Shown in pieces: positions 3,001 to 19,309 of a stretch of DNA of 22,168 nucleotides (positions are counted from its first letter, which is position 1; each line of letters starts with the position of its first letter). Made by a program: the position numbers and the translations under genes. Location of the stretch: the IMG/VR virus record IMGVR_UViG_3300034093_001062, positions 1-22,168 of that record; one strand, given 5' to 3'. This DNA comes from a virus. Under the pieces are notes generated by a model. It was not told where the DNA came from and searched no databases. It saw nothing but the letters and a program-made list of their open reading frames with translations.

Positions 3001-4493
3001 ACAATACGTTGACATACAAGATTAACAATACCGATGTGTTGAGCAGTGTGGCCGTATTACAAAATGCTGCCACAGCCAGCATTGGTTCGTTGGCAGCAGC
3101 TGCAACAGTGAGTATTGGTGCAGCCACACAAAATAACATTTTAAACATCAATGGTAATACTACAACTGGTACCGCTACACTAACTACCAACGTAACCAGC
3201 GGTATAGTAAACAACTTTGTTGCGGTAACTGGCACTATCAATTATGGTAGTGCGGCTACAACTATTACGATGTTTAACACTGCCACAACGGCACAGACGT
3301 TCCAATTAGGTGGAGCAAGCACTGGAGCAAGTACATACAGTATTGCTCATGGCGCCACAGCTAGCGCAACTATTAAAACTGTTAACTTAGGTACAGCAGG
3401 TGTAAGCGGTAGCACAACCAACGTTAACATTGGCAGTGCTGTAAGCGGAGCAACTGGTACAACAGCCGTCAACAGTGGAACTATCAACTTAGGTACTGTA
3501 CAAAGTGCTGCAACCACTGTAAACATTGGACCAGCTATCACAGGTAACATTGTTAAATTTGCCAGCACTACCGGCGGAACTGTTAATATCACAACAGATG
3601 TGACTACTGGTACTGTGTCTATGTTCAGTAGTCTAAGCACTGGTACAGTTAACCTAGGCGTAGGTAGCGGTGCAACCAACATCAACTTAGCAGGTGTTGG
3701 CGGTAACGTCAACGTTGGTACAACTGGTGGTAACTCAACATTAACAATAAACGGTAACACTACCGCAGGTACAGCAACATTAACTACCAACGTCACTACT
3801 GGCATTGTAAACTTAGTAAATGGAGTTACTACTGGTACTGTTAACATTGCTACCGGCGGTGCAAGCACTACAAACATTGGTGGCAATTCTGCAACTGTGA
3901 ACATTGGCGCTGCAGCTGGAAATAGTACACTAAACATAAGAGGAAATACCACAGCGGGTATTGCCACAATTGGTACCAACGTTACCACTGGTGGCGTGTC
4001 ATTCATGCCGTCACTGACCACAGCCACAATGACCATTGGTAGTGCGGCAGCAGGTAGATTGGCCATTGCCTTTAACCAAGCAAGTACAAGTACTACAACA
4101 GGTGCTGTGACCATTGCTGGTGGACTAGGTGTTAACGGTGCTGTTAACGCACTGACTAAATCGTTTATTATACCTCACCCAACCAAGCCAGGCAAACTGC
4201 TAAAACACGGTAGCTTGGAAGGTCCTGAGTTTGGTGTATACACACGTGGCAAGGCAACCAGCAAAATTATTGAACTTCCAGATTACTGGTTAGGTCTAGT
4301 TGATGCAGACACTATCACAGTGGATCTAACACCAATCGGCAAACATCAGAAACTATATGTAGAAAAGATTGAAGACAATCGAGTTTACATCAATACCGAA
4401 GGATTGTTTAGCAGTAATATCAGTTGCTTCTATACTGTGTGGGGCGAACGCAAAGACGTTGGCAAACTAGACATTGAGGCAGATGCGGAATGA
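1..4493 (+). CDS. Giant repeat-containing phage tail fibre protein (5'-partial)
   Basis: The frame is open from the first base. The apparent GTG at base 3 lies inside a repeat, so the true start is upstream and at least 1496 codons are visible. Numbering from that GTG, residues 1-490 are Thr/Gly/Asn/Ala-rich beta-type repeats (TTGNLFG, TVNLATGGASTTNIGG, NSTLTIRGN). Residues 493-582 contain a GSGYAVGDTVTLPG module and 736-820 are Gly-rich. Residues 854-880 carry the VDDKNIELAS motif typical of marine T4-like fibres. Degenerate repeats return at 1170-1330. Residues 1387-1490 form a distinct charged C-terminal domain (IPHPTKPGKLLKHGSLEGPE, then YWLGLVDADTITVDLTPIGK and FYTVWGERKDV), a common tail-fibre ending. 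The expected role is a trimeric fibre shaft with a C-terminal tip or folding domain. The stop overlaps the next start as ATGA. Fibre identity is well supported; the exact T4 counterpart cannot be assigned. Confidence 0.85.
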   Translation, partial: VFNSGATTGNLFGAGTSITIGAVTGTTTIRNANTVVTGDLAVNGGDVTTSATTFNLLNTTVTTGNLFGAGTTISIGAATGTTTINNANTVVTGDLAVNGGDITTNQTTFNLLNATVTTGNLFGVGTAVNIATSAAALSTLTFGPAITGNSFEINSTAAGTINLTSDVTTGVINAYTGVTTGTVNLATGGASTTNIGGAAAAVNIGTTTGNSTLTIRGNATTGTATLQTNTGVTTAAVFNTFATTGNLFGAATTIAVGTTSGTITLSNPTVVGTQTTVNLWNTVSTTGNVLGVATAVNLATSAASASTFTFGPAITANIFKIGSTAAGTINLTSDVTTGIVNAYTGVTTGTVNLATGGASTTNIGGGAAVVNIGTTGGDSTLTIRGNATTGTGTVATNAATASVFNANATTINAFGAGTAVNIGASTGTMTVGNPTLTMTQGIAFNMNGANPAIASTNTGTANIFNANITAINFGQAADISMGGTVIGAITPVTTYTTLTGTSVTAAATYTTVAPSATSGTGTGAQFTVTKTGSGTAYSGVTTITVTAVGSGYAVGDTVTLPGNLLGGTAPANNLTFTLATAVSNGTTTVRGRLQVNGNTTIGDAAGDLITFTNDVANVNATNNLTFVVNDALTNAISYPVKFRHTTTGTAAVGIGTGVQFVTENAAGSNIIGGAIESVSTNVTAASEAFNLVFKTMTAGGVAAQALLINSTTHTVGVASTAQTINTQTSSNLTVTTGATGATSAGNTLLVAGGAGGSTSGAGGTALFRGGEATTSGAGGIATFRSGDAVGTNIAGANTVILAGNGTGTGGSGSIVFRTASVGSSGSAANTMVDRFTIANTGATTFSSDVTVGGNLIVNGTLSTLNSSTITVDDKNIELASVAVVTGLTVTITSGSGVITFIGASTTTGLLAGQTITITSTQSGAPIMGALAVIQSVNSLTQITMTVVATGTTGNATISSSGATDATANGGGFTILGTTNKTFQWTSTGNNFNSNQNIDINNTLTYKINNTDVLSSVAVLQNAATASIGSLAAAATVSIGAATQNNILNINGNTTTGTATLTTNVTSGIVNNFVAVTGTINYGSAATTITMFNTATTAQTFQLGGASTGASTYSIAHGATASATIKTVNLGTAGVSGSTTNVNIGSAVSGATGTTAVNSGTINLGTVQSAATTVNIGPAITGNIVKFASTTGGTVNITTDVTTGTVSMFSSLSTGTVNLGVGSGATNINLAGVGGNVNVGTTGGNSTLTINGNTTAGTATLTTNVTTGIVNLVNGVTTGTVNIATGGASTTNIGGNSATVNIGAAAGNSTLNIRGNTTAGIATIGTNVTTGGVSFMPSLTTATMTIGSAAAGRLAIAFNQASTSTTTGAVTIAGGLGVNGAVNALTKSFIIPHPTKPGKLLKHGSLEGPEFGVYTRGKATSKIIELPDYWLGLVDADTITVDLTPIGKHQKLYVEKIEDNRVYINTEGLFSSNISCFYTVWGERKDVGKLDIEADAE
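21..350 (+). repeat. Two tandem 165-bp (55-aa) in-frame repeats in the fibre gene
   Basis: Two adjacent copies, 21-185 and 186-350, encode 55-residue units that begin TTGNLFGAGT. They share IG-TGTTTI-NANTVVTGDL and AVNGGD, and end near TTFNLLN. A third, diverging copy begins at 351 with TTGNLFGVGT. The window edge may cut off earlier copies. These are protein shaft repeats inside the coding sequence. Confidence 0.8.
399..1223 (+). repeat. Long in-frame repeat with 504-bp (168-codon) period in the fibre gene
   Basis: The copies lie at about 399-722 and 903-1223. Both encode a unit of about 107 residues: SAA, TFGPAIT, STAAGTINLTSDVTTG, NAYTGVTTGTVNLATGG, ASTTNIGG, then a STLTIRGNATTGT segment. 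A third, degenerate version lies near residues 1173-1327 of the visible protein (about 3519-3983). Differences between the first two copies are mostly at third codon positions. Confidence 0.8.
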
Positions 4494-5674
4494 CTATAAG
4501 TTACAATGCTCGCGTAGTTACTAACGGGCTAGTATTAAACCTCGACGCTGCTAACCCACGCAGCCTGAGTGGTGTTAATTCTAACTTGATAACTCATCCT
4601 GAAGATCTATCTAACGCAATTTGGGGTAAAGTATCAATAGATGTCAAATCGTCTACAACAACTGCCCCTAATGGTTCTAGCACCGTTTACTCAGTAGCAG
4701 AAATTGTAGCATCTGCTCAACATTTGTTATACTATAGTATTGGCACGGTTGCTATTAATGATGTGTTTACTTTTAGCGGATATTTTAAAAATAGCGTTGG
4801 GGTCACACAAATTGTTCTACATACTAACGGTGAAGGTACTGCAACATTTAATATTAGTGGTGCTGGAAGTGTAGCAGCAACATCCGGAGCTAATACGTTA
4901 TCAAGCAGTATTACTGATGCAGGCAATGGTTGGTATCGATGTGCTGTCACTTTTAGAAAAGCAAACACTGTTGGCACTTTTTATGTATCGAATCAAAATG
5001 GATTAGGTGTATATACCGGTGACGGAATTAAAAGTTATCTTGCTTGGGGCATGCAGTTAGAAAGAGGATCTGTGTTATCAAATTATTATCCTGTGACTGG
5101 AACAAGTGCGTCAATTACTTGGCAAGATTTAAGCACTAGTGGATTAACAGCAACATTAATTGGAAATCCTAAATATAATAGTTTATACGGCGGATGTTTA
5201 AATTTTACAGGAACAGAAACTGCTACAATTACTAACCCACTAATACAAGCAAATACTCTACAAGAATGGACAGTATGTGCCTGGGTTAACATTGATAATA
5301 CTAGCAGTCAAAATTTATTAAATTTTAACAACGGCTTATATCCGGTGTACAGTGCTAGTGGCTCACTATTATATCTTAATGGCGGTGTAGATGATTATTA
5401 TACCTACGGTGGCACATTTGGTCTTCAAGGCTGGAGTTATGCTACTTTTAGATTTAAAAATAGCACCGGAACTAGAACTATATACAAAAACGGTGTTTCA
5501 GTTACTACATCTGGACCTAACAGTACATCGACTCCGTCGGGCATCCCGTCAACGCTGACAATAGGAAGTAACCTTAGAGGTAGTCTTTCTAAGTTAGAAA
5601 TCTATAACAGACTATTATCAGACGAAGAAGTCCAACAAAACTTTAACGCCTTACGAGGGAGATACGGAGTATGA
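4490..5674 (+). CDS. LamG-like lectin protein A with CBM-like N-terminal module
   Basis: 394 aa. The N-terminus carries the family signature (RVVTNGLVLNLDAANPRS, residues 8-25). Residues 32-200 look like the carbohydrate-binding-type module common in phage adhesins: SNLITHPEDLSNAIW, then DAGNGWYRCAVTF and YLAWGMQLERGS. Residues 210-385 look like a LamG/concanavalin-A jelly roll: CLNFTGTETATI, EWTVCAWV, TRTIYKNGV, LTIGSNLRGSLSKLEIYNR. The C-terminus is NFNALRGRYGV. There is no signal peptide or membrane segment. The start overlaps the fibre stop as ATGA, with GAGG at 4476-4479 as a modest ribosome binding site. The probable role is a virion-associated glycan-binding or host-recognition protein. 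The fold is read from motifs; the ligand and virion location are unknown. Confidence 0.75.
   Translation: MTISYNARVVTNGLVLNLDAANPRSLSGVNSNLITHPEDLSNAIWGKVSIDVKSSTTTAPNGSSTVYSVAEIVASAQHLLYYSIGTVAINDVFTFSGYFKNSVGVTQIVLHTNGEGTATFNISGAGSVAATSGANTLSSSITDAGNGWYRCAVTFRKANTVGTFYVSNQNGLGVYTGDGIKSYLAWGMQLERGSVLSNYYPVTGTSASITWQDLSTSGLTATLIGNPKYNSLYGGCLNFTGTETATITNPLIQANTLQEWTVCAWVNIDNTSSQNLLNFNNGLYPVYSASGSLLYLNGGVDDYYTYGGTFGLQGWSYATFRFKNSTGTRTIYKNGVSVTTSGPNSTSTPSGIPSTLTIGSNLRGSLSKLEIYNRLLSDEEVQQNFNALRGRYGV
5656..5661 (+). promoter_or_regulatory. Shine-Dalgarno of lectin gene B inside the 3' end of gene A
   Basis: AGGGAG lies nine bases before the ATG at 5671. It is formed by the CGA GGG AGA codons for R-G-R in the terminal RGRYGV of gene A, so one stretch encodes the family C-terminal motif and supplies the next ribosome binding site. 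Confidence 0.75.
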
Positions 5675-6852
5675 GTTTAGGTCACAGTCCTCGCGTAGTT
5701 AGTGACGGTTTACAATATCACATTGATCCGACCTTAACAAAATCTTGGAAAGATAGAAGCGTTAACATTCATCCCAATCCGTTAGATATCGTTGCTTGGT
5801 TTTCCCTACTCTCGGGAACTAACAACTGTCGAATCAGTAGAGAGACTACATTTACCAGCCCGGTGGGTGGTATTCCGATGAAAATGGAAACTACAGGAAA
5901 CGACAGTCATGTAGGCACCTATGCTAGTCCTGTATACAATTTAGCACCTACACGGATAGGTGAAACATGGACAGTGAGTGTGTGGGCACGAGCCAATAAA
6001 GCAACTACAGGTCAAATTTTTATATTTGGTTGTTATAACTTTGGCGCTAGTTACTATGAGGCACCGGCAACGACTATTAATATTACGACAGAATGGCAGA
6101 GATTTAGCTATACCTATACCATGATTAATGCTGGTTCTATATACATGCAGACTAGACTAGATGGTGCTGATACTTTTGACGGTTCAACCATATGGTGGGA
6201 TGGCCTACAGGTAGAAAAATCTAGCGCAATGACAACCTTTACTGCAAAGACAAGTTCTGCGCTATATGATTTATCCAGCAACAGTTACCATGCTATCGCA
6301 GTAAACAATCCTAGTTATATAACAGATAACAGTGGCATACTAGCCCTTGACGGTGTAAAAGATTACATTACATTTCCTGCAAACAACCGTCCAACAATTT
6401 CAACAGTCACAGGTTTTACAATAGGCATGTGGGTCTATCAAGCACCTACACAAGTTGGGTTGTTTTGGAATTATCTGTATGTAACATACCCTCTCGAAAT
6501 GGGAACTTATGGAACTAACAGCGGCGCATTTGGTATGAAAGACAATGCCGCAGCAGGTGGCCCTAATGTGAACACCGGCAACATTAGCGCAGGATGGAAT
6601 TACGTTGCATTTGGTACTAACTCAAGTCAAATTCCATTCTTATATCATTATAATGCTACTACTAGTTCTGTTGTAACTGCAGGCGCATTTACACCAGCAA
6701 CTTATACTATAGATAAGTTATTCCAAGGTATCAACGGCTATACTAGTTATTACGGAGCTAAATTTGGACCGATACAAATTTATAATAGAGCACTAACTGC
6801 CGCAGAAGTACTACAAAATTTTAATGCATTAAGAGGGAGATACGGAATATGA
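5671..6852 (+). CDS. LamG-like lectin protein B with CBM-like N-terminal module
   Basis: 393 aa. The family N-terminus is GHSPRVVSDGLQYHIDPTLTKSW (residues 4-26, split here as GHSPRVVSDG and LQYHIDPTLTKSW). Residues 33-190 form a CBM-like jelly roll, different in sequence from that of A: NIHPNPLDIVAW, ETWTVSVWARANK, TEWQRFSYTYT, IWWDGLQVEKS. Residues 195-385 form the LamG part: LYDLSSNSYHA, LALDGVKDYITF, FTIGMWVYQAP, WNYVAFGTNSS, KFGPIQIYNRALTAAEV. The protein ends QNFNALRGRYGI. It overlaps both neighbours as ATGA, so translational coupling with A and C is likely. Glycan binding is inferred from fold, and the centre differs from A enough to suggest a different ligand. Confidence 0.75.
   Translation: MSLGHSPRVVSDGLQYHIDPTLTKSWKDRSVNIHPNPLDIVAWFSLLSGTNNCRISRETTFTSPVGGIPMKMETTGNDSHVGTYASPVYNLAPTRIGETWTVSVWARANKATTGQIFIFGCYNFGASYYEAPATTINITTEWQRFSYTYTMINAGSIYMQTRLDGADTFDGSTIWWDGLQVEKSSAMTTFTAKTSSALYDLSSNSYHAIAVNNPSYITDNSGILALDGVKDYITFPANNRPTISTVTGFTIGMWVYQAPTQVGLFWNYLYVTYPLEMGTYGTNSGAFGMKDNAAAGGPNVNTGNISAGWNYVAFGTNSSQIPFLYHYNATTSSVVTAGAFTPATYTIDKLFQGINGYTSYYGAKFGPIQIYNRALTAAEVLQNFNALRGRYGI
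6834..6839 (+). promoter_or_regulatory. Shine-Dalgarno of lectin gene C inside the 3' end of gene B
   Basis: AGGGAG sits nine bases before the ATG at 6849. It is made by AGA GGG AGA, the R-G-R codons of the terminal RGRYGI of gene B, in the same geometry as the A/B junction. Confidence 0.75.
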
Positions 6853-9482
6853 GCGTATTAGCTGGCCCAGATATTACCTCTGATAGTTTGATAGTACACT
6901 ACGATGCTGCTACTGCTACTAGTATAACTAACATAAACAGAAATTTATTTACAAGCCCAGAAGAAATTACCAACGTTCACCCATGGTATACTAACGGAAC
7001 TACAGTACAAAACAATGTTGCTAGAGCGCCTGACGGTACTATGACCGCAGACAAGGTTATTGGCAATTTTGGAGTAACTACTAGAAAAAGCGTTTATCAA
7101 TTTGTTACTGGATTACTAGCAGGTGAACGATATACGTTTAGTGTTTATATAAAAAGTGCAGGCTACACTACGGCTATGATATGGCATGATAATAATCCCT
7201 ACAGTCAACCTGGCGGCTATCAGGGTGCAGGGTCGTTATTGAATTTGTCAACCGGCGTAAGTAGCGACAATAATTATACTACTATGACTGCCGTAGGCGA
7301 CGGATGGTATCGATGCCAAACAACCGCAGTATATCCATATTCAGATTCATATACCTATAGTATCACTATGGGAGAAGCTAACGGGGGACTAGGAACACCG
7401 ACTGGTAACGGTGTAGACGGAATATTTGTCTGGGGAGCACAATTAGAAAGAACTGGTTCGGTTGTACCATTACCTTCATTTGAAGTTAACTTTAACAGAG
7501 GTTATAATAGTTCACTAATTACCTATACTAGATCAACAGTTGGTACATTTTACAATTCGAGTGGATTAGTAGCTACTGCCGCTGCAAATACTCCACGTTA
7601 CGATTATGACCCCGTAACTTTTACAAATAGAGGGTTATTATTAGAAGCGGCGGCTACTAACAGTATTCCTAACAGCACACAAAGTACAGATCAATTTGCA
7701 GTTGCATCCGGTGGAGTTACTAAAAATTTAGTCACTAGTAATAATCCTTCAAGTGCTTCGGCTGTGTCATTCAGCGTAAGAGCCCTAGCAGCTTCTAGTA
7801 CTGCCAACGAAATTAAGTTTATGTTGCGAACTGAAAGTTGGGCAGGTGGCGGTGTTAACATATTCTCAGCATTTTTTAAACAAATTACAGCTAACATAAC
7901 ATACCCTTGTCTAGTCATGGATGATGCTGGCGTCAATGGAGGCATATATGCAAGGTTTGACCTAACAGGCAGCGGCACTGTACTCCAGGGTGCCGCAACT
8001 GGTCCTTCAGGAACTTTTCTAGGAGCAGGAATAGAACGCCTTCCGAACGGGTGGTATCGTTGCTGGGTTGTTGGTACTCCAGTTATTAGCGGTGGCCCCC
8101 GAGCTGCTATTACTATCCGTAATAATACAACCACCTCCAACGGATACGATCCAGCTTCTACATTGGCTATTGGTGACGGTGTTTATGTATGGGGTCCTAT
8201 GATTGAAAAGAACGTAGCTGACCGTAGAAAGCCTAGTTCGTATTACGAAACAACCGGTAGTACTGCTACTAGGGGCGCCGATAGTGCTGCCATTACTGGT
8301 ACTAATTTTAGTTCGTTTTTTAACAACACTGAAGGCACTATCCTAATAGAATACTACAGAAGTAACGAAACTACGTTTGGCGGCTACACTTGGCCTATGA
8401 GTATTTCCGACGGTACTAATAATAATCAAATTAGTTTCTATAACATTCTAGGTACTTCAGCAGTAACTAATATGGCTTATAGAACCGGCAATGCAGATCA
8501 GTTAGATTATCTACAAGTAAACCTCAATAACGGAATTAACAAACTAGCACAGAGTTATAAAACTAATCAAGTAGCATTTGCAGCCAACGGATCTTTAGTA
8601 GGCGTAGATTATGTTAACACTACACCAAGTGTAAACAGATTAACTATTGGCAATAGTTACGGCGGTGGCAATGATTTAAATGACAGAGTAAGTAGAATTG
8701 TCTATTGGCCTAAAGCGTTAAGTCCAACTGAAGTAACAGCACTTACTAATTTATGGAGCTCCTTAACCACGACTGTAGGCGTTGCTCCAACCCCTTATTA
8801 TCCAGTTAGTTCTAACGCACTAACAAATAAATTAACAGATATTAGCGGCAATGGTGCTGTAGGTACAATAATTGGAACTTACGGTTACGATACTACCACA
8901 TACAGTGTTCCAGTTCTTACTCTTAATAGAAGTAGTACCGCATCAGACGGTCAAATATCACTAGCTACTCGAGATTTAGATGCACTAGCAAAAACATATA
9001 ACTTTACTGTGATGTTTGCTGCAAGAAAACGATACTTTGGATTATTAGGAAATAATAACGGATCATCTCAACTGTTCCAAGGTGCTAATAACGGATATAG
9101 TTTAGGCTGGCGAATTAGCGAAGGATATCAAGGCCCTCCAGGAAACGTATTTGCAGGAACACACTCCTGGGCTTTAGGTTTTAATGATATAAACACCAGC
9201 GTTGCCGTTTCCGATACTGTGAATGCCGGCAATAGAATGTGTATATGTGCGTTTACAGTAACTTCCACTACACTAACAGCCTTCGTCAACGGCAACTTTA
9301 ATACAGCAGTAAATCCTAGAACTTATGTTAGCGGACCGAGTATTCCGTTAATTAGTTTTACAGGTGCCGGCGCAGGTAGTTTTAACGGTGATATTGGATT
9401 TTTTATGATTTATAATAGAGCATTAAGCCAAGCAGAGATCACTCAAAATTTTAACGCCCTACGCGGTAGATACGGCATTTAA
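6849..9482 (+). CDS. Double LamG/CBM lectin protein C with nested second lectin unit
   Basis: 877 aa, more than twice the size of its paralogues. Residues 1-204 match the family: DITSDSLIVHYDA, RNLFTSPEEITNVHPW, GERYTFSVYIKSAG, GDGWYRCQTTAV, FVWGAQLERTGS. Residues 205-644 form a complete second unit: ITYTRSTVGTFYNSSGLV with RYDYDPVTFTNRGLLLEAA, a second CBM-like domain (GIERLPNGWYRC, GDGVYVWGPMIEK), then a LamG-like domain ending SRIVYWPKALSPTEV. Residues 645-877 resume the normal family pattern: PTPYYPVSS, LTDISGNGAVGTIIG, then the LamG half ending IYNRALSQAEITQNFNALRGRYGI (the last residues as NFNALRGRYGI). Gene C ends the first lectin block. Its final RGRYG codons lack a strong Shine-Dalgarno, and the next gene starts 13 bases later. 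Confidence 0.75.
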   Translation: MSVLAGPDITSDSLIVHYDAATATSITNINRNLFTSPEEITNVHPWYTNGTTVQNNVARAPDGTMTADKVIGNFGVTTRKSVYQFVTGLLAGERYTFSVYIKSAGYTTAMIWHDNNPYSQPGGYQGAGSLLNLSTGVSSDNNYTTMTAVGDGWYRCQTTAVYPYSDSYTYSITMGEANGGLGTPTGNGVDGIFVWGAQLERTGSVVPLPSFEVNFNRGYNSSLITYTRSTVGTFYNSSGLVATAAANTPRYDYDPVTFTNRGLLLEAAATNSIPNSTQSTDQFAVASGGVTKNLVTSNNPSSASAVSFSVRALAASSTANEIKFMLRTESWAGGGVNIFSAFFKQITANITYPCLVMDDAGVNGGIYARFDLTGSGTVLQGAATGPSGTFLGAGIERLPNGWYRCWVVGTPVISGGPRAAITIRNNTTTSNGYDPASTLAIGDGVYVWGPMIEKNVADRRKPSSYYETTGSTATRGADSAAITGTNFSSFFNNTEGTILIEYYRSNETTFGGYTWPMSISDGTNNNQISFYNILGTSAVTNMAYRTGNADQLDYLQVNLNNGINKLAQSYKTNQVAFAANGSLVGVDYVNTTPSVNRLTIGNSYGGGNDLNDRVSRIVYWPKALSPTEVTALTNLWSSLTTTVGVAPTPYYPVSSNALTNKLTDISGNGAVGTIIGTYGYDTTTYSVPVLTLNRSSTASDGQISLATRDLDALAKTYNFTVMFAARKRYFGLLGNNNGSSQLFQGANNGYSLGWRISEGYQGPPGNVFAGTHSWALGFNDINTSVAVSDTVNAGNRMCICAFTVTSTTLTAFVNGNFNTAVNPRTYVSGPSIPLISFTGAGAGSFNGDIGFFMIYNRALSQAEITQNFNALRGRYGI
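7461..8780 (+). other. In-frame 1320-bp nested CBM+LamG module inside gene C
   Basis: The module covers codons 205-644. Removing it would join LERTGS directly to V-A-PTPYYPVSS, which mirrors LERGSVLSNYYPVTG in gene A. The two boundaries begin with similar, in-phase sequences: GTTGTACCATTACCTT at 7461 and GTTGCTCCAACCCCTT at 8781, with 11 of 16 bases identical. This could be a weak junction repeat or chance. Confidence 0.6.
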
Positions 9483-9495
9483 CTAAATATAATAT
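9483..9495 (+). promoter_or_regulatory. AT-rich leader with promoter-like TATAAT, no Shine-Dalgarno
   Basis: The 13 bases between gene C and the 209-aa gene read CTAAATATAATAT. They contain a perfect TATAAT (9488-9493) and resemble, without matching, the T4 late-promoter box TATAAATA. There is no purine-rich ribosome binding site here. TATAAT is only two bases from the ATG, so as a -10 box it would start RNA inside the gene. A promoter role is speculative. Confidence 0.2.
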
Positions 9496-10125
9496 ATGGC
9501 AAACGCAGACAAAAATATCGTTATAACTCCCAATGTAGGGCAAACAGCACAGCCTACTATTATTTTTACCGGACAAAACGCTAGTCCCATTACCCTACGG
9601 GTAACGGATGACGGCGCATTAAGCTGGGAAGGATCAGCTGGTCAGTTATTTTCTATTACCAATAGTTTAACCGGAACCTTGTTTAGTATTAACGATATTT
9701 CTGGATTGCCAATTTTAGAGATAACAGATACGCCCAGCATTATTGCCTATGCACCAATTACTGGCGCAGCGGGCGCAACCATCATGGCAGAAGCCAGCGG
9801 ATTATGCGATGGCTACAGAAACGTATTTGATATAAAAACAGATCAAACACTTGTAAGTTCTACTTACATTGTTGATTCGAAAGATTTAGAAGTCGTTGTA
9901 AGCGGCCAGCAGATGATTCCTTATGTTACTACTGCTCCAGGTCCTTGGATTCCAGCATATGATGCTGGATCATCAAGAACATTTAGAGTTAGAGAAAATA
10001 GGCTAATTATATACAACGCACCGGAAATCGGCAGTCAGGTCCAAATAACCGTAAAGAAAACGTCGGCGACTAGACAAAGGCGCAGATATCCGTTCAGCCC
10101 AACAACAATCGCATTAGGAGATTAA
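9496..10125 (+). CDS. Small virion structural or fibre-associated protein (209 aa)
   Basis: 209 aa, no signal peptide or membrane segment. Residues 40-80 contain a module, GALSWEGSAGQLFSITNS followed by LTGTLFSINDISGLPILE, that recurs in the 850-aa fibre protein (residues 696-735). The C-terminal half (115-190) is a probable beta-sandwich: STYIVDSKDLEVVVSGQQM, a PGPWIPAYD turn, RTFRVRENRLIIYNAP, QVQITVKKTS. The tail is basic (ATRQRRRYPF) and then ends ALGD. The start follows gene C by 13 bases, and its last codons (TTA GGA GAT) provide AGGAG for the next gene. The position between lectin and large structural genes suggests a fibre or baseplate accessory role. No specific function is recognised. 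Confidence 0.7.
   Translation: MANADKNIVITPNVGQTAQPTIIFTGQNASPITLRVTDDGALSWEGSAGQLFSITNSLTGTLFSINDISGLPILEITDTPSIIAYAPITGAAGATIMAEASGLCDGYRNVFDIKTDQTLVSSTYIVDSKDLEVVVSGQQMIPYVTTAPGPWIPAYDAGSSRTFRVRENRLIIYNAPEIGSQVQITVKKTSATRQRRRYPFSPTTIALGD
10116..10120 (+). promoter_or_regulatory. Shine-Dalgarno of the 970-aa gene
   Basis: AGGAG lies ten bases before the ATG at 10131. It overlaps the last codons (Leu-Gly-Asp) of the preceding 209-aa gene. Confidence 0.6.
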
Positions 10126-10130
10126 TCAAA

Positions 10131-13043: not shown

Positions 13044-13050
13044 AGAGGAG
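13044..13050 (+). promoter_or_regulatory. Strong Shine-Dalgarno of the 850-aa fibre gene
   Basis: AGAGGAG immediately follows the TAA of the 970-aa gene and lies eight bases before the ATG at 13059. It is among the strongest ribosome binding sites in the window, consistent with a highly made virion protein. Confidence 0.7.
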
Positions 13051-13058
13051 AATTATTA

Positions 13059-15611
13059 ATGGCCTCAAGGGATTTCTTGAAGCATGTAGTTTCTACAAGC
13101 GAACCAGTTGGCAGTGGGTTAGGGGACGAGTATCATAACCCGTCTTCTAACAAGCTATTCAAACGACTGGCTGTTAACGGAACTAGTGTACAATGGGTTG
13201 AGCAACAACAAGCATTGACTGTTCAGTCTTCAGGCACAACTGTAGCTACAGGTGCCCGCACAATTAATTTTCCAGGCGCAACAATAAGTTACAACAGCGT
13301 AACTGATACTATCTCTGTACAAAGTAGCGGTATTCCAGGCGGCGCCAATACAAACATTCAATTTAATAGCAGCGGTGCGTTTGCTGGTTCTAGTAATCTC
13401 ACGTGGGACGGTTCATTATTAAATGTTACTGGACGCATAGAAACAAACGGCAGCAGAGTAGTTGACTATAAAAACACAACAGCACAATGGGCAATGAGTG
13501 GTGGTGGACTGGTAACTTGGACAGGAGCATCGATACTATGGAACACTAGAGTTATCTGTATCCCTGTTGAAAACTCAGAAATGGGTTCAAGCGGCCACTT
13601 TGATATCACATGTCCAACCAGCGGAACAGTGGTGTATTATAACAGTGGCAACGTGACTACCACACTTACTGCAACCGCAGCAGGTATTCCATTAGGCGCA
13701 TGGGAAGCATTATACTACGAAGTAACAGAAGGTATGTCTTCTGCTTTTGATCAGACTAGATTTAGAGTTGTTAACTATCAAAATACTACATGGCGTCCAA
13801 GTACAGGCTGGCTTTTAGTGGCCGCAGTAAACGGTGACGGCAACAACATTGGTCACATAAAATGGCTACCTGGACAGGTTAATTTACCAACAACTGGTGC
13901 AACAGTGACTTACAATACTGGTACTGGTGTTGCCAGTTGGGCAAGTGCTACAGGAACAGTCACTGCTGTCAGCGTGGCCAGTGCCAACGGCTTTGCAGGA
14001 TCATCAAGCGGCGGCGCTACACCAGCATTGACTATTTCAACTAGCATCACTGGTGTACTAAAAGGCAACGGCACAGCTATTAGTGCTGCTGTAGGCGGAA
14101 CAGATTTTCAAACAGCACAAAGCGTTACGGGTATTGTAAAATCAAGTGGAACGACTCGATCAGCTGCCGTAGCTGGTACTGATTATCAAGCAGCCGTTAG
14201 TGCTACTGGTATATTAAAATCAAGTGGTGTAAGTGGTAACGTAAGTGCTGCTGTAGCTGGTACTGATTATGTAGCGCCTGCAGGAACATTTTTTATTGGT
14301 ACTACTAGTATTGCTCATAATAGAGCTACTGCCGCACAAAGTTTAACTGGTATTAACATTGACGGAAGTGCTGGAAGTGCTACTTCGTCAACATTCACTC
14401 GAGCATTACAGCAAACTGACGGAACAAGTTTTCTTACTCCGGTTGATCCACGTGGCGCCAGCGGTAGTAGAACAACTATATTAAATGCTAACCAATACAA
14501 TTACGGGTTATTTTCAGAATTTAAAAATTCAAGCGCATTTAGTTTCACTGGAACTTACACTGGCTTAATTACATATGCAAGTTATGCAGGTACAACAGCC
14601 AGCACTGGTGATCCAAGTTATCAGTTGGCATTCCATCCAAACGCAGCCAACGCTACGGCAAATCCTAGATTAAAATTCCGTGCTGGTATTGACACCACAT
14701 GGGGCGCATGGGGCGAAATTAGCCACACTGGCGTAACTGATTTAAATATTCAACACAACAGTATCGGTGCTGGTGTAGCAGCTTCGGGCACAGCTGGTAC
14801 ATTGCGATTAACTACTGCTGGAACAGCTATTACAGTTTCAGTAACATCGGGCGTTGATCGATATTTCTTCAATGCCACTGGCGCTGTAAATTCATTTAGT
14901 ATCTACGAAAACGCTAACGTGCCCTACATTAATGCCCATAGCACTATTGCTATTCGAGCCAATCAGAATGGTGGTTCTGGCGGTACAGTTTCTTTCTCCG
15001 GCGGAACTGTACAGGTCGTTAATCAGTTACTTGATTTAACAGCAGCTACACCGGCCACTACCAATGCTCTCCGAGTCAAGAGCAATTTAGCCTACCTTAG
15101 TCCAAGCAACACTAGCACCATTACCAGCAAAATGCTTGATGCTGGTACACTGAGTTTTGAAGGCACTGTGGGACAGTTGTTCTCAATTACCAACTCAATG
15201 ACTGGTACAATTTTCAGTGTTAACGATATCTCAGGTATTCCTAGCATTGAAGTACTAGATACTGGAGTTGTTAAGATAGCTCAATACGCTGGATTTGTTG
15301 CCTACGGTGTAAGTCCAGCATTAACAGCTGCAGGATCAACACAAGGTACTGCGTTAGAATTAACAAGACCAATTAACGATGTAACTACAGTAGCAGCATC
15401 AACTGGTATTAGATTGCCAGCGGCTACACCAGGCATACGAATTGTTATTCGTAACGGTGGCGCAAATACGTTGAACGTCTATCCAGCCACTGGTGCGCAA
15501 ATTAACAGTCTTGGTACTAACGTGGCGTTTGGTCACACAATCACTACTGTTTTAGAATTTGTTGCATTTACGGCAACGCAGTGGTATACATTAAACACTA
15601 CCTATGCGTAA
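13059..15611 (+). CDS. Tail fibre protein with modular beta-repeats
   Basis: 850 aa. Residues 1-50 (EPVGSGLGDEYHNPSSNKLF, then KRLAVNGTSVQWVEQ) are the usual opening of marine phage fibres. Residues 180-270 form a module with GAWEALYYEVTEG and WLLVAAVNGDG. Residues 325-410 hold three degenerate repeats: TGVLKGNGTAISAAVGGTDF, TGIVKSSGTTRSAAVAGTDY, TGILKSSGVSGNVSAAVAGT. Residues 478-555 resemble a pyocin-knob-type element: NYGLFSEFKNSS, AFHPNA, RLKFRAGIDTTWGAWGEI. Residues 696-735 repeat the module of the 209-aa protein. The end (755-850) is a familiar fibre C-terminus: GIRLPAATPGIRIVIRNGG, ANTLNVYPATGAQINSLG, TATQWYTLN. It is preceded by a strong ribosome binding site. A receptor-proximal fibre is the best reading; the attachment point is unknown. 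Confidence 0.8.
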   Translation: MASRDFLKHVVSTSEPVGSGLGDEYHNPSSNKLFKRLAVNGTSVQWVEQQQALTVQSSGTTVATGARTINFPGATISYNSVTDTISVQSSGIPGGANTNIQFNSSGAFAGSSNLTWDGSLLNVTGRIETNGSRVVDYKNTTAQWAMSGGGLVTWTGASILWNTRVICIPVENSEMGSSGHFDITCPTSGTVVYYNSGNVTTTLTATAAGIPLGAWEALYYEVTEGMSSAFDQTRFRVVNYQNTTWRPSTGWLLVAAVNGDGNNIGHIKWLPGQVNLPTTGATVTYNTGTGVASWASATGTVTAVSVASANGFAGSSSGGATPALTISTSITGVLKGNGTAISAAVGGTDFQTAQSVTGIVKSSGTTRSAAVAGTDYQAAVSATGILKSSGVSGNVSAAVAGTDYVAPAGTFFIGTTSIAHNRATAAQSLTGINIDGSAGSATSSTFTRALQQTDGTSFLTPVDPRGASGSRTTILNANQYNYGLFSEFKNSSAFSFTGTYTGLITYASYAGTTASTGDPSYQLAFHPNAANATANPRLKFRAGIDTTWGAWGEISHTGVTDLNIQHNSIGAGVAASGTAGTLRLTTAGTAITVSVTSGVDRYFFNATGAVNSFSIYENANVPYINAHSTIAIRANQNGGSGGTVSFSGGTVQVVNQLLDLTAATPATTNALRVKSNLAYLSPSNTSTITSKMLDAGTLSFEGTVGQLFSITNSMTGTIFSVNDISGIPSIEVLDTGVVKIAQYAGFVAYGVSPALTAAGSTQGTALELTRPINDVTTVAASTGIRLPAATPGIRIVIRNGGANTLNVYPATGAQINSLGTNVAFGHTITTVLEFVAFTATQWYTLNTTYA
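14049..14272 (+). repeat. Three degenerate TG-LK-SG...AAVAGTDY repeats in the 850-aa fibre
   Basis: Three in-frame units (residues about 331-405) read TGVLKGNG...AAVGGTDF, TGIVKSSG...AAVAGTDY and TGILKSSG...AAVAGTDY. They are typical fibre-shaft repeats. Confidence 0.65.
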
Positions 15612-15612
15612 T

Positions 15613-15617
15613 GAGGT
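15613..15617 (+). promoter_or_regulatory. Shine-Dalgarno of lectin gene D
   Basis: GAGGT lies six bases before the ATG at 15624, in the 12-base gap after the TAA of the 850-aa gene. It opens the second lectin block and is not embedded in the upstream reading frame. Confidence 0.6.
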
Positions 15618-15623
15618 ACTATA

Positions 15624-16289
15624 ATGGCAACTTATTATGGTACGGGTATAGTTACTTCGGGATTGACATTTTATGCAGATGCGGGTAATCCTAAAAGTTA
15701 TCCGGGTACTGGTACAGTAGTAAACGATATATCCGGTAATAGAAATACCGGAACATTAGTCAATAGTCCTACTCACACAGCTGGAGCTTCTGGCTACTGG
15801 ACATTTAATGGTACATCTAGCGTTATTAATTTTCCCAGTGTAAATCTTACATCAACTACATTTACTGTATTTGGCATTGCTAGATACAATGGACTAGGAG
15901 GGAACGTTAGGGGTAGAATTATTAATTCTTACGCAAATAATTGGTTAATGGGTCACTGGGGCAGTAGTACAGAAAATTATTATTCTGAAGGATGGGTATC
16001 CGCTACTAGTGCAGGTACTAATGATACTGCTTGGCGTATCTATCACGCAACGGGCAACGTTTCGTTAGATCAATATCAGATATATGTCAACGGCGTATCT
16101 ACTGCCGGCCCTAATAACGCAGGCGCTGCTGGCCCAAACGGAATTTCACTTGGTGCTATGGGTAATAGCGGAGCCTATACAGAATACTCCAACGGTGATT
16201 GCGCATTAGTGGGTGCGTATAATCGAGTGTTAACGGTAGCAGAAATCTTACAGAATCACAATGCATTACGCACGAGGTACGGGTTATGA
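15624..16289 (+). CDS. LamG-like lectin protein D (compact, no CBM module)
   Basis: 221 aa, single-domain member of the lectin family. The N-terminus is YGTGIVTSGLTFYADAGNPK, followed by SYPGTGTVVNDISGNRNTG (residues 5-43). The LamG strands read GYWTFNGTSSVINF, LTSTTFTVFGIARYNG, WRIYHATGNVS and QYQIYVNGVSTAG, then GISLGAMGNSG and GDCALVGAYNRVLTVAEILQ. The protein ends NHNALRTRYGL. Protein E has the same length and layout, and the two share the opening DAGN-KSYPGTGT and the following DISGN, suggesting tandem duplication. The gene overlaps E as ATGA. Its role is inferred to be virion-surface glycan binding. Confidence 0.75.
   Translation: MATYYGTGIVTSGLTFYADAGNPKSYPGTGTVVNDISGNRNTGTLVNSPTHTAGASGYWTFNGTSSVINFPSVNLTSTTFTVFGIARYNGLGGNVRGRIINSYANNWLMGHWGSSTENYYSEGWVSATSAGTNDTAWRIYHATGNVSLDQYQIYVNGVSTAGPNNAGAAGPNGISLGAMGNSGAYTEYSNGDCALVGAYNRVLTVAEILQNHNALRTRYGL
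16274..16278 (+). promoter_or_regulatory. Shine-Dalgarno of lectin gene E inside the 3' end of gene D
   Basis: GAGGT is formed by ACG AGG TAC, the T-R-Y codons of the terminal RTRYGL of gene D. Eight bases separate its AGG from the ATG at 16286. Confidence 0.65.
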
Positions 16290-16951
16290 GCAATCACTAC
16301 GGTACAAGTATTGTTACTGAGAATTTACTATTTTATTTAGATGCTGGTAATTTAAAAAGTTATCCAGGAACTGGAACAACGTGGGGCGATATTAGCGGAA
16401 ATACAAGAGCTGGCACATTAACACTTGGTCCAACATACACTAGCGGAGCTAGTGGATATTTTAGTTTTGACGGAGTTGACGATTACGTTAACATGTCTAC
16501 TCAAAATCTACAGCGAAATTTTACATTAGAAATATGGTCGTATGTAACAGGTGACAGTTGCGGACTTTTTGGTCAAGGCGGTTTTGTAGCAAGTCAAGGG
16601 CTGCATATTTTATGGAATTCTGCCGCATCTAGGGGTATGGTTTTTGGAATGTATGGCAACGACTTAGATTCACCGTTATATACTATGGTGTTTAATGCTT
16701 GGCATCAATTTACATTTACCTACAACCACACTACCTTTCTTAAACAATTTTATGCTGACGGCGTACTAATCAACAGTGCTGTACAATCTGCATATTCGGG
16801 AACCGGGCAACTTAATGTTGGTGCAACATATTCTACACCAACTAGTCCTATGAAAGGCAGGATAGCCAATACTAAGATGTATGGTACTGTTTTAACTGCC
16901 AGCGAGGTATTACGAAATTTTAATGCGCAGCGTACAAGGTATGGTATATAA
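16286..16951 (+). CDS. LamG-like lectin protein E (compact, no CBM module)
   Basis: 221 aa, the same length as D. The opening is YGTSIVTENLLFYLDAGNLK, then SYPGTGTTWGDISGNTRAG. The LamG features are clearer than in D: YFSFDGVDDYVNM (58-70), FTLEIWSYVTG (79-89), AWHQFTFTYNHTTFLKQFYA with DGVLINSA (138-165), GQLNVGATYS (174-183), then GRIANTKMYGTVLTASEVLR. It ends NFNAQRTRYGI. The gene ends with TAATG rather than ATGA, so its stop shares a single base with the next start. Between D and E, the middle of the protein has diverged far more than either end. Confidence 0.78.
   Translation: MSNHYGTSIVTENLLFYLDAGNLKSYPGTGTTWGDISGNTRAGTLTLGPTYTSGASGYFSFDGVDDYVNMSTQNLQRNFTLEIWSYVTGDSCGLFGQGGFVASQGLHILWNSAASRGMVFGMYGNDLDSPLYTMVFNAWHQFTFTYNHTTFLKQFYADGVLINSAVQSAYSGTGQLNVGATYSTPTSPMKGRIANTKMYGTVLTASEVLRNFNAQRTRYGI
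16936..16939 (+). promoter_or_regulatory. Weak Shine-Dalgarno of lectin gene F inside the 3' end of gene E
   Basis: AAGG comes from ACA AGG TAT, the T-R-Y codons of the terminal RTRYGI of gene E. It lies 11 bases before the ATG at 16951, the widest spacing of the five embedded sites. Confidence 0.5.
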
Positions 16952-18135
16952 TGGCAATAGGACATAATAATTCATCAGCTACTAATGGGCTACTCATGTG
17001 CTATGATATTGCCAATACTAAAAAATCATGGCGCGGCGCACCGGTAACTAATTATATTCCTTTTCCAGCAGCAAGTCATAACGGATCATCGTTTGTCAAC
17101 TTTGGATATAATTATGCAAATTTAGGAGTAACGTATACATACGGCGCAGGGGTTAGTAATCCAGTTAATGCAGCAGGGGTATTACAATATTTTACAGGAA
17201 CGACCGGATATAAATATTTTTCAGTTGACTCAACAACGTTACCAACTACAGGCACTTATACGTTTTCATACTATGCTAGAATGACCGTTGGCGGCGCAGC
17301 AAACAATATTGGCAATAGCCAACTATGGCGGGCTGCCGGCTCGGATCGTGCTGTCACAGGTGATTGGAATCCTACATTTACATCAGAATGGGTTCGTTAC
17401 TCGACCTCAGGCCCAGCCGAGGCAGGCACAATCTTGCAATACTTTCCAGTACACTCGGGATCAATAACTGGCGGATACACTATTGAGTATTGTGGATTTC
17501 AATTAGAACTTGGAAGTTATGCTACGCCATTCGTTGAGGGCACTAGGAGTGCTTCACAAGCTATTGTAGATTTAACAAGTAATTATACACTTACTGCTAC
17601 TAGTTTAACATATCCTATCGATAATACTTTTAGTTTTAATGGAAGTAGTAGTGTTGTTGCATCTCCTAGCACTACGTTAAATCTTACTAGTGGTGTTTCA
17701 ATGGAGATGGTTTTTAGATCTACTGATATACAAAGTAGGGCGCAAGGTTATATGAGCTTTAGCCCTGCCCCACAATATATAAATTTTTTCTCTCCTGGTA
17801 ATAGTACGATACGTTGGGAAACTTGGCAGAATGCCGGTAGCGTAGGTGGCGCATTTTTTAGCCCAGCCACGCTGACAAATAATACTTGGTATCATGCGGT
17901 CGGCACATACTCTTCAAGTACCGGAGTTTCAGTTTTATATATTAACGGAGTGCAAGTTAATACTGCTACATACAGTGCATTTAGTTATGGAAATCTTACA
18001 TCAACAATACGTATTGGTGAATATTCAGGATACTTATCTGGAAATATTCCAATATCAAAAATGTATAGTCGTGCATTAACAGCAAACGAAGTTAGACAAA
18101 ATTTCGCAGCTTATGCGGGGAGGTTTGGATTATGA
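16951..18135 (+). CDS. LamG-like lectin protein F with CBM-like N-terminal module
   Basis: 394 aa, the same two-domain layout as A and B. The opening is GHNNSSATNGLLMCYDIANT with KKSWRGAP. The CBM-like part (residues 33-200) reads VTNYIPFPAASHNGSSF, GTYTFSYYARMTVGG, SEWVRYSTSGPAEAG, YTIEYCGFQLELGSYATPF. The LamG part (205-385) reads FSFNGSSSVVASP, SGVSMEMVFRSTDIQ, NTWYHAVGTYSSSTGVSVLY with INGVQVNT, TIRIGEYSGYLSGNIPISKM and YSRALTANEV. The C-terminus is the diverged NFAAYAGRFGL. It resembles the first-block proteins A and B in architecture more than its neighbours D, E and G, so the two blocks share ancestry. It overlaps G as ATGA. Confidence 0.75.
   Translation: MAIGHNNSSATNGLLMCYDIANTKKSWRGAPVTNYIPFPAASHNGSSFVNFGYNYANLGVTYTYGAGVSNPVNAAGVLQYFTGTTGYKYFSVDSTTLPTTGTYTFSYYARMTVGGAANNIGNSQLWRAAGSDRAVTGDWNPTFTSEWVRYSTSGPAEAGTILQYFPVHSGSITGGYTIEYCGFQLELGSYATPFVEGTRSASQAIVDLTSNYTLTATSLTYPIDNTFSFNGSSSVVASPSTTLNLTSGVSMEMVFRSTDIQSRAQGYMSFSPAPQYINFFSPGNSTIRWETWQNAGSVGGAFFSPATLTNNTWYHAVGTYSSSTGVSVLYINGVQVNTATYSAFSYGNLTSTIRIGEYSGYLSGNIPISKMYSRALTANEVRQNFAAYAGRFGL
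18117..18123 (+). promoter_or_regulatory. Shine-Dalgarno of lectin gene G inside the 3' end of gene F
   Basis: GGGGAGG is formed by GCG GGG AGG, the A-G-R codons of the terminal AGRFGL of gene F. It lies eight bases before the ATG at 18132 and is the strongest of the five embedded sites. Confidence 0.75.
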
Positions 18136-18872
18136 CAGCTAGATCAGGAACAGGTATTGTTAGCGATAGTTTAGTATTAAACTTAGATGCATCTAACATT
18201 TTAAGTTATGATCCAACATTATTTATTGGTGTTCGAGATGTTACAAATCTTAAAAACACTTGTACGTCTACTGGCGGCGTAACTGTTACACTAGTTAGTG
18301 ACCGTAGCGCACCTAACTATTTTACATTTGATGGAACATCAGGGTATCTTTTAGCCAGTGCTCCAGATTTACCAACAGGTACTAGCGCAAAAACTATATT
18401 ATGTTGGTGCTGGCCTGATTCTACCCTTGTAACAACTGATACATATACTGGACTTGTTGGCTACGGTGGCCGATCAAGTTCTAATGCAACACTTCTATCA
18501 ATGCAGACTACAGGAGCTACATGGTACGCAAGCAGCGCCTATTGGGGCAATGACTATGTTCCTGGATCCACAGTTGTTATTAATAAAAATGCTTGGAATA
18601 TGATAGGCATTATACATCAAGGTACTAATACAGTAAACAACACCACGCTTATTGTAGGCAATAGTAGTGGTGTTACTACAATAACAGGTAGCTCTAGCTC
18701 TTCCGCCACAGTGATGACACAGACCAGTCAAAACTTAACTATAGGATGTACTGATGTACCGGGACGTTATATGAAAGGCCGTATCAGTCAAGTATTAATG
18801 TATAATAGAGCATTAACTGTTGCCGAGGTTACTCAAAACTTTAATGCACGTCGAGCATCATTTGGTCTTTAA
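18132..18872 (+). CDS. LamG-like lectin protein G (single domain, end of array)
   Basis: 246 aa. The opening is RSGTGIVSDSLVLNLDASNI, then LSYDPTLFIGVRDVTN. There is no separate CBM module; residues 60-235 form the LamG part: NYFTFDGTSGYLLASAP, AKTILCWCWPDS, NAWNMIGIIHQGTNTVNNTT, NLTIGCTDVPGRYMKGRISQ, VLMYNRALTVAEV. The C-terminus NFNARRASFGL is the most diverged of the family. As the last plus-strand gene it has no follower, and its terminal codons (CGA GCA TCA) carry no Shine-Dalgarno. Its TAA at 18870-18872 overlaps the stop of the convergent Nudix gene. Confidence 0.75.
   Translation: MTARSGTGIVSDSLVLNLDASNILSYDPTLFIGVRDVTNLKNTCTSTGGVTVTLVSDRSAPNYFTFDGTSGYLLASAPDLPTGTSAKTILCWCWPDSTLVTTDTYTGLVGYGGRSSSNATLLSMQTTGATWYASSAYWGNDYVPGSTVVINKNAWNMIGIIHQGTNTVNNTTLIVGNSSGVTTITGSSSSSATVMTQTSQNLTIGCTDVPGRYMKGRISQVLMYNRALTVAEVTQNFNARRASFGL
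18869..18872. other. Overlapping stop codons of convergent genes
   Basis: The palindrome TTTAAA contains TAA of the plus-strand lectin G (18870-18872) and TAA of the minus-strand Nudix gene (18871-18869). Two transcription units meet with no intergenic space, and I see no hairpin plus T-run terminator for either side. Confidence 0.9.
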
Positions 18873-19309
18873 ATTAATTCAATTACGTCAAATACAGTTT
18901 GTAATTTTGTACGAACAATTTTACTGCTAAAACTGTTACGCAATCCCTGATGTAGGGGCTTTGGAGCATGGTCCAATGTAGTCCACGCCCAACCAATATG
19001 CTCGTCACTTAGTAACGGTACAAATTCATCCGCTATCACACACAGATATGTGTGAAAATTAAAAACCGTATCGTTACTAACAAATGTTTCAATTGGAATT
19101 GTTTTAAGTATAGTAGGTATACTGCCAATTTCTTCTTGAATTTCTCTCTGAAGACCTTGCCATGGAGTTTCTTGATCTTCTGCTGTGCCGCCTACTAAAC
19201 TCCACGTGCCTTGATGTTTGCCCGTAGATTTTTGTAATAATAGAAATCGTTTAGTAGACTTTGCATAGAATAAGGCACCACTACAAACTATACGTTCTTT
19301 AAAGTTCAA
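18869..19309 (-). CDS. Nudix hydrolase (MutT-like)
   Basis: 146 aa from the preferred TTG at 19309. The Nudix box G-x5-E-x7-REIQEEIG occupies residues 41-62, with R55, E56, E59 and E60 for metal binding. The last position, usually hydrophobic, is Ser63. The N-terminal strand KERIVCSGALFYA and the HQGTWSLVGG approach are typical of the fold. The family hydrolyses nucleoside diphosphate-X compounds; the substrate cannot be read here. The start is uncertain: TTG at 19342 (GGAG eight bases upstream) would add 11 residues, while TTG at 19309 has a better AGGAG nine bases upstream and gives MNFKERIV. Either start lies inside the end of the gp15-like gene, so translation is probably coupled to it. 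Confidence 0.85.
   Translation of the reverse strand: MNFKERIVCSGALFYAKSTKRFLLLQKSTGKHQGTWSLVGGTAEDQETPWQGLQREIQEEIGSIPTILKTIPIETFVSNDTVFNFHTYLCVIADEFVPLLSDEHIGWAWTTLDHAPKPLHQGLRNSFSSKIVRTKLQTVFDVIELI

What the first reader, a model, noticed from the sequence alone, without database searches (positions are those of the whole stretch)
4490..18872. Lectin cassettes whose conserved C-terminal motif encodes the next gene's ribosome binding site
Seven lectin-like genes end in variants of R-G-R-Y-G-[IVL]. In the five followed directly by another lectin gene (A, B, D, E, F) those codons contain the next gene's Shine-Dalgarno: AGGGAG, AGGGAG, GAGGT, AAGG and GGGGAGG, 8-11 bases before the ATG. In the two without an abutting lectin gene, C (CGC GGT AGA) and G (CGA GCA TCA), the site is weak or absent. 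A protein terminus and a translation signal seem to be under joint selection. Such a cassette would bring a working start for its follower wherever it is duplicated.
Basis: partly seen in the sequence, partly recalled or inferred. Interest (0 to 1): 0.75.

Follow-up and report, generated by a model that had tools for sequence, protein, structure and literature searches.

The report
Phage lectin ends encode neighbour's RBS
In tandem arrays of phage lectin genes, the conserved last amino acids of one protein are written in exactly those codons that form the ribosome-binding site of the next gene, so lectin genes can be swapped in and out of the array and the follower still has a start signal; the principle is known, but this shuffled-cassette use of it was not found described in the papers searched.

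Summary
Seven ConA-like lectin genes end in variants of [RK]-x-R-[YF]-G-[ILV]. The five that abut another lectin gene (ATGA or TAATG overlap) carry that gene's Shine-Dalgarno (SD) in those codons; C and G do not.

I tested it on 621 homologous gene ends. Among non-redundant RGR ends, overlapping genes (n=149) use GGG for Gly in 55% and AGR for the second Arg in 97%, against 11% and 68% in non-overlapping ends (n=114). The Arg just outside the SD shows no difference. The bias survives 85 phylogenetically independent contrasts (61 against 9), moves with the position of the start codon, and exceeds a synonymous-codon null by about 18 standard deviations.

Closely related lectins occur before different followers, and related followers after different lectins, with the embedded SD kept at most such joints; at several joints homology ends at the ATGA. 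The residues lie in the predicted C-terminal helix of the fold and persist without a follower, so the protein motif has its own constraint. Selection on the amino acids for SD capacity (the middle Gly) is only suggestive.

Embedded SDs and translational coupling are known. New here is a portable, protein-motif-encoded start signal in a shuffling adhesin array.

The parts
4490..5674 (+). lectin gene A (394 aa; Laminin_G_3 domain; ends ALRGRYGV)
   Evidence: PF13385 E=1.6e-14
5656..5661 (+). AGGGAG, SD of gene B inside the Arg-Gly-Arg codons of A; 9 nt before ATG 5671
5671..6852 (+). lectin gene B (393 aa; ends ALRGRYGI); ATGA overlap with A
6834..6839 (+). AGGGAG, SD of gene C inside the tail of B; 9 nt before ATG 6849
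6849..9482 (+). lectin gene C (877 aa; ends ALRGRYGI written CGC GGT AGA; no abutting lectin, next ATG at 9496)
15624..16289 (+). lectin gene D (221 aa; ends ALRTRYGL)
16274..16278 (+). GAGGT, SD of gene E inside the tail of D (ACG AGG T); 8 nt between the last G and ATG 16286
16286..16951 (+). lectin gene E (221 aa; ends AQRTRYGI); modelled here: jelly roll with a C-terminal helix at residues 205-219 holding the motif
16936..16939 (+). AAGG, SD of gene F inside the tail of E; 11 nt before ATG 16951 (TAATG joint)
16951..18135 (+). lectin gene F (394 aa; ends AYAGRFGL)
18117..18123 (+). GGGGAGG, SD of gene G inside the tail of F; 8 nt before ATG 18132
18132..18872 (+). last lectin gene G (246 aa; ends ARRASFGL, CGA GCA TCA, no SD; no gene follows on this strand)
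4476..4493 (+). generic embedded-SD joint: tail of the 1496-aa upstream ORF (GAG GCA GAT GCG GAA TGA, GAGG at 4476-4479) overlaps the start of A by ATGA without the lectin motif

Best explanation
The seven genes are phage ConA/laminin-G-like lectin modules, probably virion adhesins, laid out as overlapping cassettes. Each module ends in a conserved helix, EVxQNFNAx[RK]GR[YF]G[ILV], that belongs to the protein fold. When the next gene starts at the stop codon, the same nucleotides are under a second selection: the Gly and second-Arg codons are kept as GGR AGR so that they form a Shine-Dalgarno site, and an A-ending last codon plus TGA supplies the ATG at the right spacing. Ribosomes finishing one lectin therefore start, or re-start, the next (translational coupling). 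Because the start signal sits entirely inside the upstream cassette, lectins can be swapped, added or lost at the ATGA boundary without stranding the follower. Shown: the dual coding, its dependence on overlap and start position, and exchange of neighbours. Inferred: efficient re-initiation, adhesin role, recombination at the joint as the route of exchange.
For: Overlap against non-overlap ends, non-redundant: GGG 82/149 vs 13/114 (p=5e-14), GGR 136/149 vs 61/114, AGR 144/149 vs 77/114, AGG 83/149 vs 21/114; the neighbouring Arg outside the SD does not differ, 69/130 vs 38/86 (p=0.21). 85 independent contrasts on a tree of the domain: 61 vs 9 with 15 ties (p=1e-10); outer-Arg control 11 vs 11. 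Within the same locus: 30 of 40 positive, 1 negative. Register: AGG at the second Arg 43/49 when d=-1 vs 40/100 when d=-4 (p=2e-8); when the start lies 1-8 nt downstream, the next Gly codon is GGA in 37/40 vs 78/145 at d>=9. Codon entropy drops only at the two SD codons (1.30 and 1.18 bits vs 1.89 and 2.22), flanking conserved codons being equally free. Synonymous null. Presence of an SD at the joint rises from 45% in contigs whose other genes do not use SDs to 92% in those that do; non-overlap ends are flat at 26-43%. Lectins 60-97% identical with both ends overlapping: 32 of 37 pairs have different or only weakly related followers; in L080/L237 (96%) and L129/L130 (87%) homology stops at the ATGA, and in L299/L319 it runs about 75 nt further. 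Related followers behind different lectins: 28 of 29 overlap pairs. AlphaFold places the motif in a C-terminal helix, pLDDT about 90 or above.
Against: No expression data: coupling and start strength are inferred. About 11% of overlapping RGR ends do not have GGR-AGR, and a group of overlapping lectins (KNRF[VI]; L261, L270, L272, L286, L297) has no SD at the joint, so overlap works without it in some phages. The few RGR ends in contigs scored as not using SDs still have GGR-AGR (13 of 15), so either that score is noisy or the codon bias is not fully tied to SD use elsewhere in the contig. One pair with a shared follower (L106/L158) lacks the SD at both joints. Part of the high SD strength comes from the peptide itself: RGR re-coded at random already gives about -6.3. 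Other overlapping genes in the same contigs also have embedded SDs (mean -4.08 vs -2.18 in non-overlapping ends).
Confidence: 0.85

Rival explanations
1. Ordinary embedded SD: any gene overlapping its successor carries that gene's SD, and the lectin motif is just a purine-rich protein tail that happens to fit; nothing about lectin cassettes is special.
For: Non-lectin overlapping pairs in the same contigs also have stronger SDs than non-overlapping ends; the upstream ORF of gene A does it with an unrelated tail; published as a general feature of about half of overlapping pairs in most prokaryote groups (PMC6728339) and as a constraint on the 3' end of upstream genes (PMC2784483).
Against: Lectin joints are much stronger than the other overlaps of the same contigs (-7.27 vs -4.08, p=1e-18), and the joint is kept through exchange of either partner. 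This rival is the mechanism itself; what it leaves out is the modular reuse.
Confidence: 0.35
2. The shared codons are inherited: one ancestral joint was duplicated many times, and GGG AGA is a relic, not a selected feature.
For: Lectins in one array are paralogues and tails are similar across phages; one non-overlapping end (L127:7688) still carries GGG AGA.
Against: Adjacent conserved codons (first Arg, Asn, Phe) vary freely while only the two SD codons are restricted; 85 independent contrasts; the bias moves when the start codon moves.
Confidence: 0.05
3. The peptide itself is under SD selection: the middle residue is Gly because only R-G-R can encode a strong SD, so the translation signal has shaped the protein end.
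For: R-G-R allows up to -12.7, against -6.6 for K-S-R or K-T-R and -4.1 for K-N-R; Gly in 158/198 overlapping vs 121/210 non-overlapping ends; stratified by SD use p=5e-6, and p=0.044 in loci found with queries free of RGR; five modules fused in frame to further sequence have P, S, S, K, S in that place.
Against: Within-locus comparison is only p=0.08 and unstratified unbiased loci p=0.09; Gly frequency also rises in non-overlapping ends of SD-using contigs, a lineage effect.
Confidence: 0.4
4. The conserved DNA at the joint is a recombination site (DNA-level signal) rather than a ribosome signal.
For: Homology between related arrays can stop at the ATGA.
Against: The conserved part is only the GGRAGR register; it shifts with the start codon and vanishes when the start is 9 nt or more downstream, which a recombination site would not do. 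Homology also breaks about 75 nt inside the next gene (L299/L319).
Confidence: 0.04

Closest known systems
Translational coupling by termination-reinitiation at ATGA/TAATG overlaps with intragenic SD (Nat Commun 2019, PMC6728339)
   Same: Overlap types, SD in the 3' coding end of the upstream gene, serial genes.
   Different: Here the SD is carried by a conserved protein motif of a module family, is stronger than in neighbouring overlaps, and is retained through exchange of either partner.
Constraint on 3' ends, stop codons and synonymous codons from the next gene's SD (Eyre-Walker 1996, as cited in PMC2784483)
   Same: Synonymous codon choice at the end of one gene is bent by the SD of the next.
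   Different: That is a genome-wide average; here one protein family was followed with independent contrasts and a register test.
Phage ConA-like/LamG lectin proteins (Pfam Laminin_G_3; PHROG 8510 and 24074; Synechococcus phages S-PM2 and S-SKS1, Flavobacterium phage immuto)
   Same: Fold, C-terminal QN[FY]NAx[RK]xR[YF]GL-type motif, annotated as virion structural or tail-fibre-like.
   Different: In the cyanophage records read here the lectin ends are not overlapped (next starts 12-57 nt away) and in immuto they abut without an SD-forming motif; the window has two overlapping arrays.

Membership tests
Laminin_G_3 / ConA-like lectin superfamily | Match to the family profile above the curated cut-off | tested here: met
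   Six of seven genes exceed the PF13385 cut-off; B does not and is linked by its alignment, PHROG 8510 and its tail.
Laminin_G_3 / ConA-like lectin superfamily | Jelly-roll fold | tested here: met
   Model of E, pLDDT 87.7; hits to viral ConA-like proteins (TM 0.90) and to lectin domains of solved proteins.
Laminin_G_3 / ConA-like lectin superfamily | Sugar binding | not testable with these tools
   Needs a binding assay.
Translationally coupled overlapping gene pairs | Start codon overlaps the upstream stop (ATGA or TAATG) | tested here: met
   Five lectin joints in the window; 231 homologous joints.
Translationally coupled overlapping gene pairs | SD inside the upstream coding end, beyond chance | tested here: met
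Translationally coupled overlapping gene pairs | Translation of the second gene depends on translation of the first | not testable with these tools
   Needs reporter constructs with an early stop in the first gene.

The most novel reading that the evidence does not exclude
The C-terminal helix of this lectin family has become a dual-coded connector: protein element and ribosome-binding site in one, shaped by selection on both codons and residues. It makes adhesin genes plug-and-play, so that phages can grow and reshuffle long adhesin arrays with each newcomer expressed and expressing its follower.
Probability: 0.35. Interest if true: 0.7.

Novelty: new variant of a known kind. Interest (0 to 1): 0.52.

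Why it matters
It suggests how tandem adhesin arrays can gain, lose and exchange members without breaking expression: the start signal travels with the upstream module. It also gives an unusually clean natural case (same peptide, many copies, follower present or absent, start position varying) to measure how strongly a ribosome-binding site constrains a protein end, and a simple reporter test: recode six nucleotides, peptide unchanged.

Tried and rejected
Strict RGR motif inside fused proteins as a third codon class: no strict matches, five looser fused ends, all without RGR. Query with the tail of D: only four relatives. Generic SD strength per locus by mean duplex energy: noisy (rho 0.21), replaced by a motif-based estimate. 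Stratified test with statsmodels failed, module absent; done by hand. A PHROG call with guessed coordinates failed. Near-identity search of the window's tail-sheath end in phage records: no match. Genome-contig scan gave 29 loci, mostly metagenome bins, many Bacteroidota; not used in the statistics. A paper on Baltic Flavobacterium phages was read for virion proteomics of the immuto phages and does not cover them. Recombination-site and pure-inheritance readings were considered and rejected (see rivals).

Full report
What is there. The window is a virus record of 22,168 bases with a contractile-tail phage context: a tail-sheath-type gene and a structural gene on the minus strand, and on the plus strand a 1496-aa repetitive structural ORF, three lectin genes (A-C), three other structural-type genes, and four lectin genes (D-G). 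Six of the seven pass the Laminin_G_3 cut-off and B aligns with them.

Sample. Scans of viral contigs plus four annotated phage regions gave 343 loci, 3.27 Mb; 621 distinct lectin-like gene ends were found by a tail motif and classed by the position d of the best following start: 231 overlapping (d=-4 or -1), 15 other overlaps, 75 at 0-8, 256 farther, 44 with none. Of the overlapping ones, 170 have a follower recognised as lectin; the rest have other followers, and those seen in long arrays still have the SD.

Codon test. Among [RK]GR[YF] ends, thinned at 80% identity, the Gly codon is GGG in 82 of 149 overlapping against 13 of 114 non-overlapping ends; the second Arg is AGR in 144 of 149 against 77 of 114. 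Gene-wide usage is GGG 8% of Gly and AGG 12% of Arg. The first Arg, which lies outside the SD, does not differ (p=0.21). Internal Gly-Arg pairs are GGR-AGR in 31%, overlapping termini in 89%, non-overlapping in 40%. On a tree of the domain, 85 independent overlap/non-overlap contrasts gave 61 for and 9 against, and 11 against 11 for the first Arg.

Register. With TAATG joints the SD must sit 3 nt further along: the second Arg is AGG in 43 of 49, against 40 of 100 with ATGA joints. With starts 1-8 nt after the stop, the bias leaves that pair and the next Gly becomes GGA in 37 of 40, against 78 of 145 when the start is 9 nt or more away. This is what a ribosome-binding site requires and what inheritance or a recombination site does not explain.

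Strength. Re-coding the same peptides with the genes' own usage gives -6.34 +/- 0.13 kcal/mol; overlapping ends have -8.80; non-overlapping ends have -5.60, slightly weaker than their null of -6.32 +/- 0.20, in line with known depletion of SD-like sequence in coding regions (PMC5100845). Other overlapping gene pairs in the same contigs average -4.08 and other non-overlapping ends -2.18: the effect is general, but the lectin joint is the strongest class.

Dependence on SD use. Where other genes of a contig use SDs, 92% of lectin joints have one; where they do not, 45%; non-overlapping ends stay at 26-43%. The drop comes mainly from other tails replacing RGR: the 15 RGR joints in the lowest class are still GGR-AGR in 13. 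Lectins of contigs without SD use (L261, L270, L272, L286, L297) have ATGA joints with a KNRF tail and no SD. Flavobacterium phage immuto, whose locus shows no SD use, has abutting lectins, one ending TKTRFGL, without the SD-forming codons.

Exchange of neighbours. Of 37 pairs of overlapping lectins 60-97% identical, 32 have followers that are unrelated or only weakly alike. The window's own D (also in locus L129, identical) and its 87% relative in L130 precede lectins that are only about 30% alike, and both keep ACG AGG; the DNA similarity falls from 97% to 43% at the ATGA. L080/L237 falls from 87% to 27% there. In L299/L319 similarity continues about 75 nt into the next gene before it falls. 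Conversely, 28 of 29 overlap pairs with followers at least 60% alike have upstream lectins less than 60% alike; the joints shown keep the SD except L106/L158. Arrays reach about ten lectins in one locus (L112).

Why the peptide is there. In the model of E (pLDDT 87.7) the motif forms the C-terminal helix 205-219 of the jelly roll, and it is present in non-overlapping genes and, in other spellings, in phages without SDs. So the protein end has its own reason to be conserved. Whether the middle Gly is also selected for SD strength is open: it favours overlapping ends in the stratified test (p=5e-6 in all, p=0.044 in the loci found without RGR in the query) but not clearly within loci (p=0.08).

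Placing it. Embedded SDs in overlapping genes, and their effect on codon use, are established (PMC6728339; PMC2784483). I found no paper in the searches made describing a protein-family tail used as a portable RBS in shuffled adhesin arrays; the library lacks most subscription journals, so this is weak evidence of novelty. Verdict: a real, well-supported variant of a known principle.

Noticed in passing
window 18869-18872: The last lectin G and the minus-strand Nudix-like gene (18869-19342) end against each other, sharing TTAA, so that both stop codons overlap.
   Followed up: no
window 9483-9495: The leader of the gene after C is CTAAATATAATAT with no SD; it resembles a T4-type late promoter (TATAAATA-like, from memory), which would restart transcription where the first lectin array ends.
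   Followed up: no
L112 (start about 3788), L068 (start about 4141), L117 (start about 2694), L015, L188 and others: A small non-lectin protein family (MSLTEENGLTYVTLDLSEASSL... or MYDxRxYxIFxxTEL...) is interspersed between lectin genes in many arrays; its role is unknown.
   Followed up: partly
window 16286-16948 model: The PDB hits to the model include a cyanopodophage tailspike (9vyh) among many lectin domains; a structural relative in a phage adhesin.
   Followed up: no
non-redundant RGR ends, all loci: Overlapping ends have Tyr rather than Phe after the second Arg more often (68 of 110) than non-overlapping ends (25 of 67); the Tyr codon TAC is the main increase. No explanation.
   Followed up: no
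L127 end 7688: A GGG AGA TAC GGT GTA TGA end whose ATGA frame closes after a few codons, with a lectin start 123 nt on: possibly the relic of a removed or broken follower.
   Followed up: no
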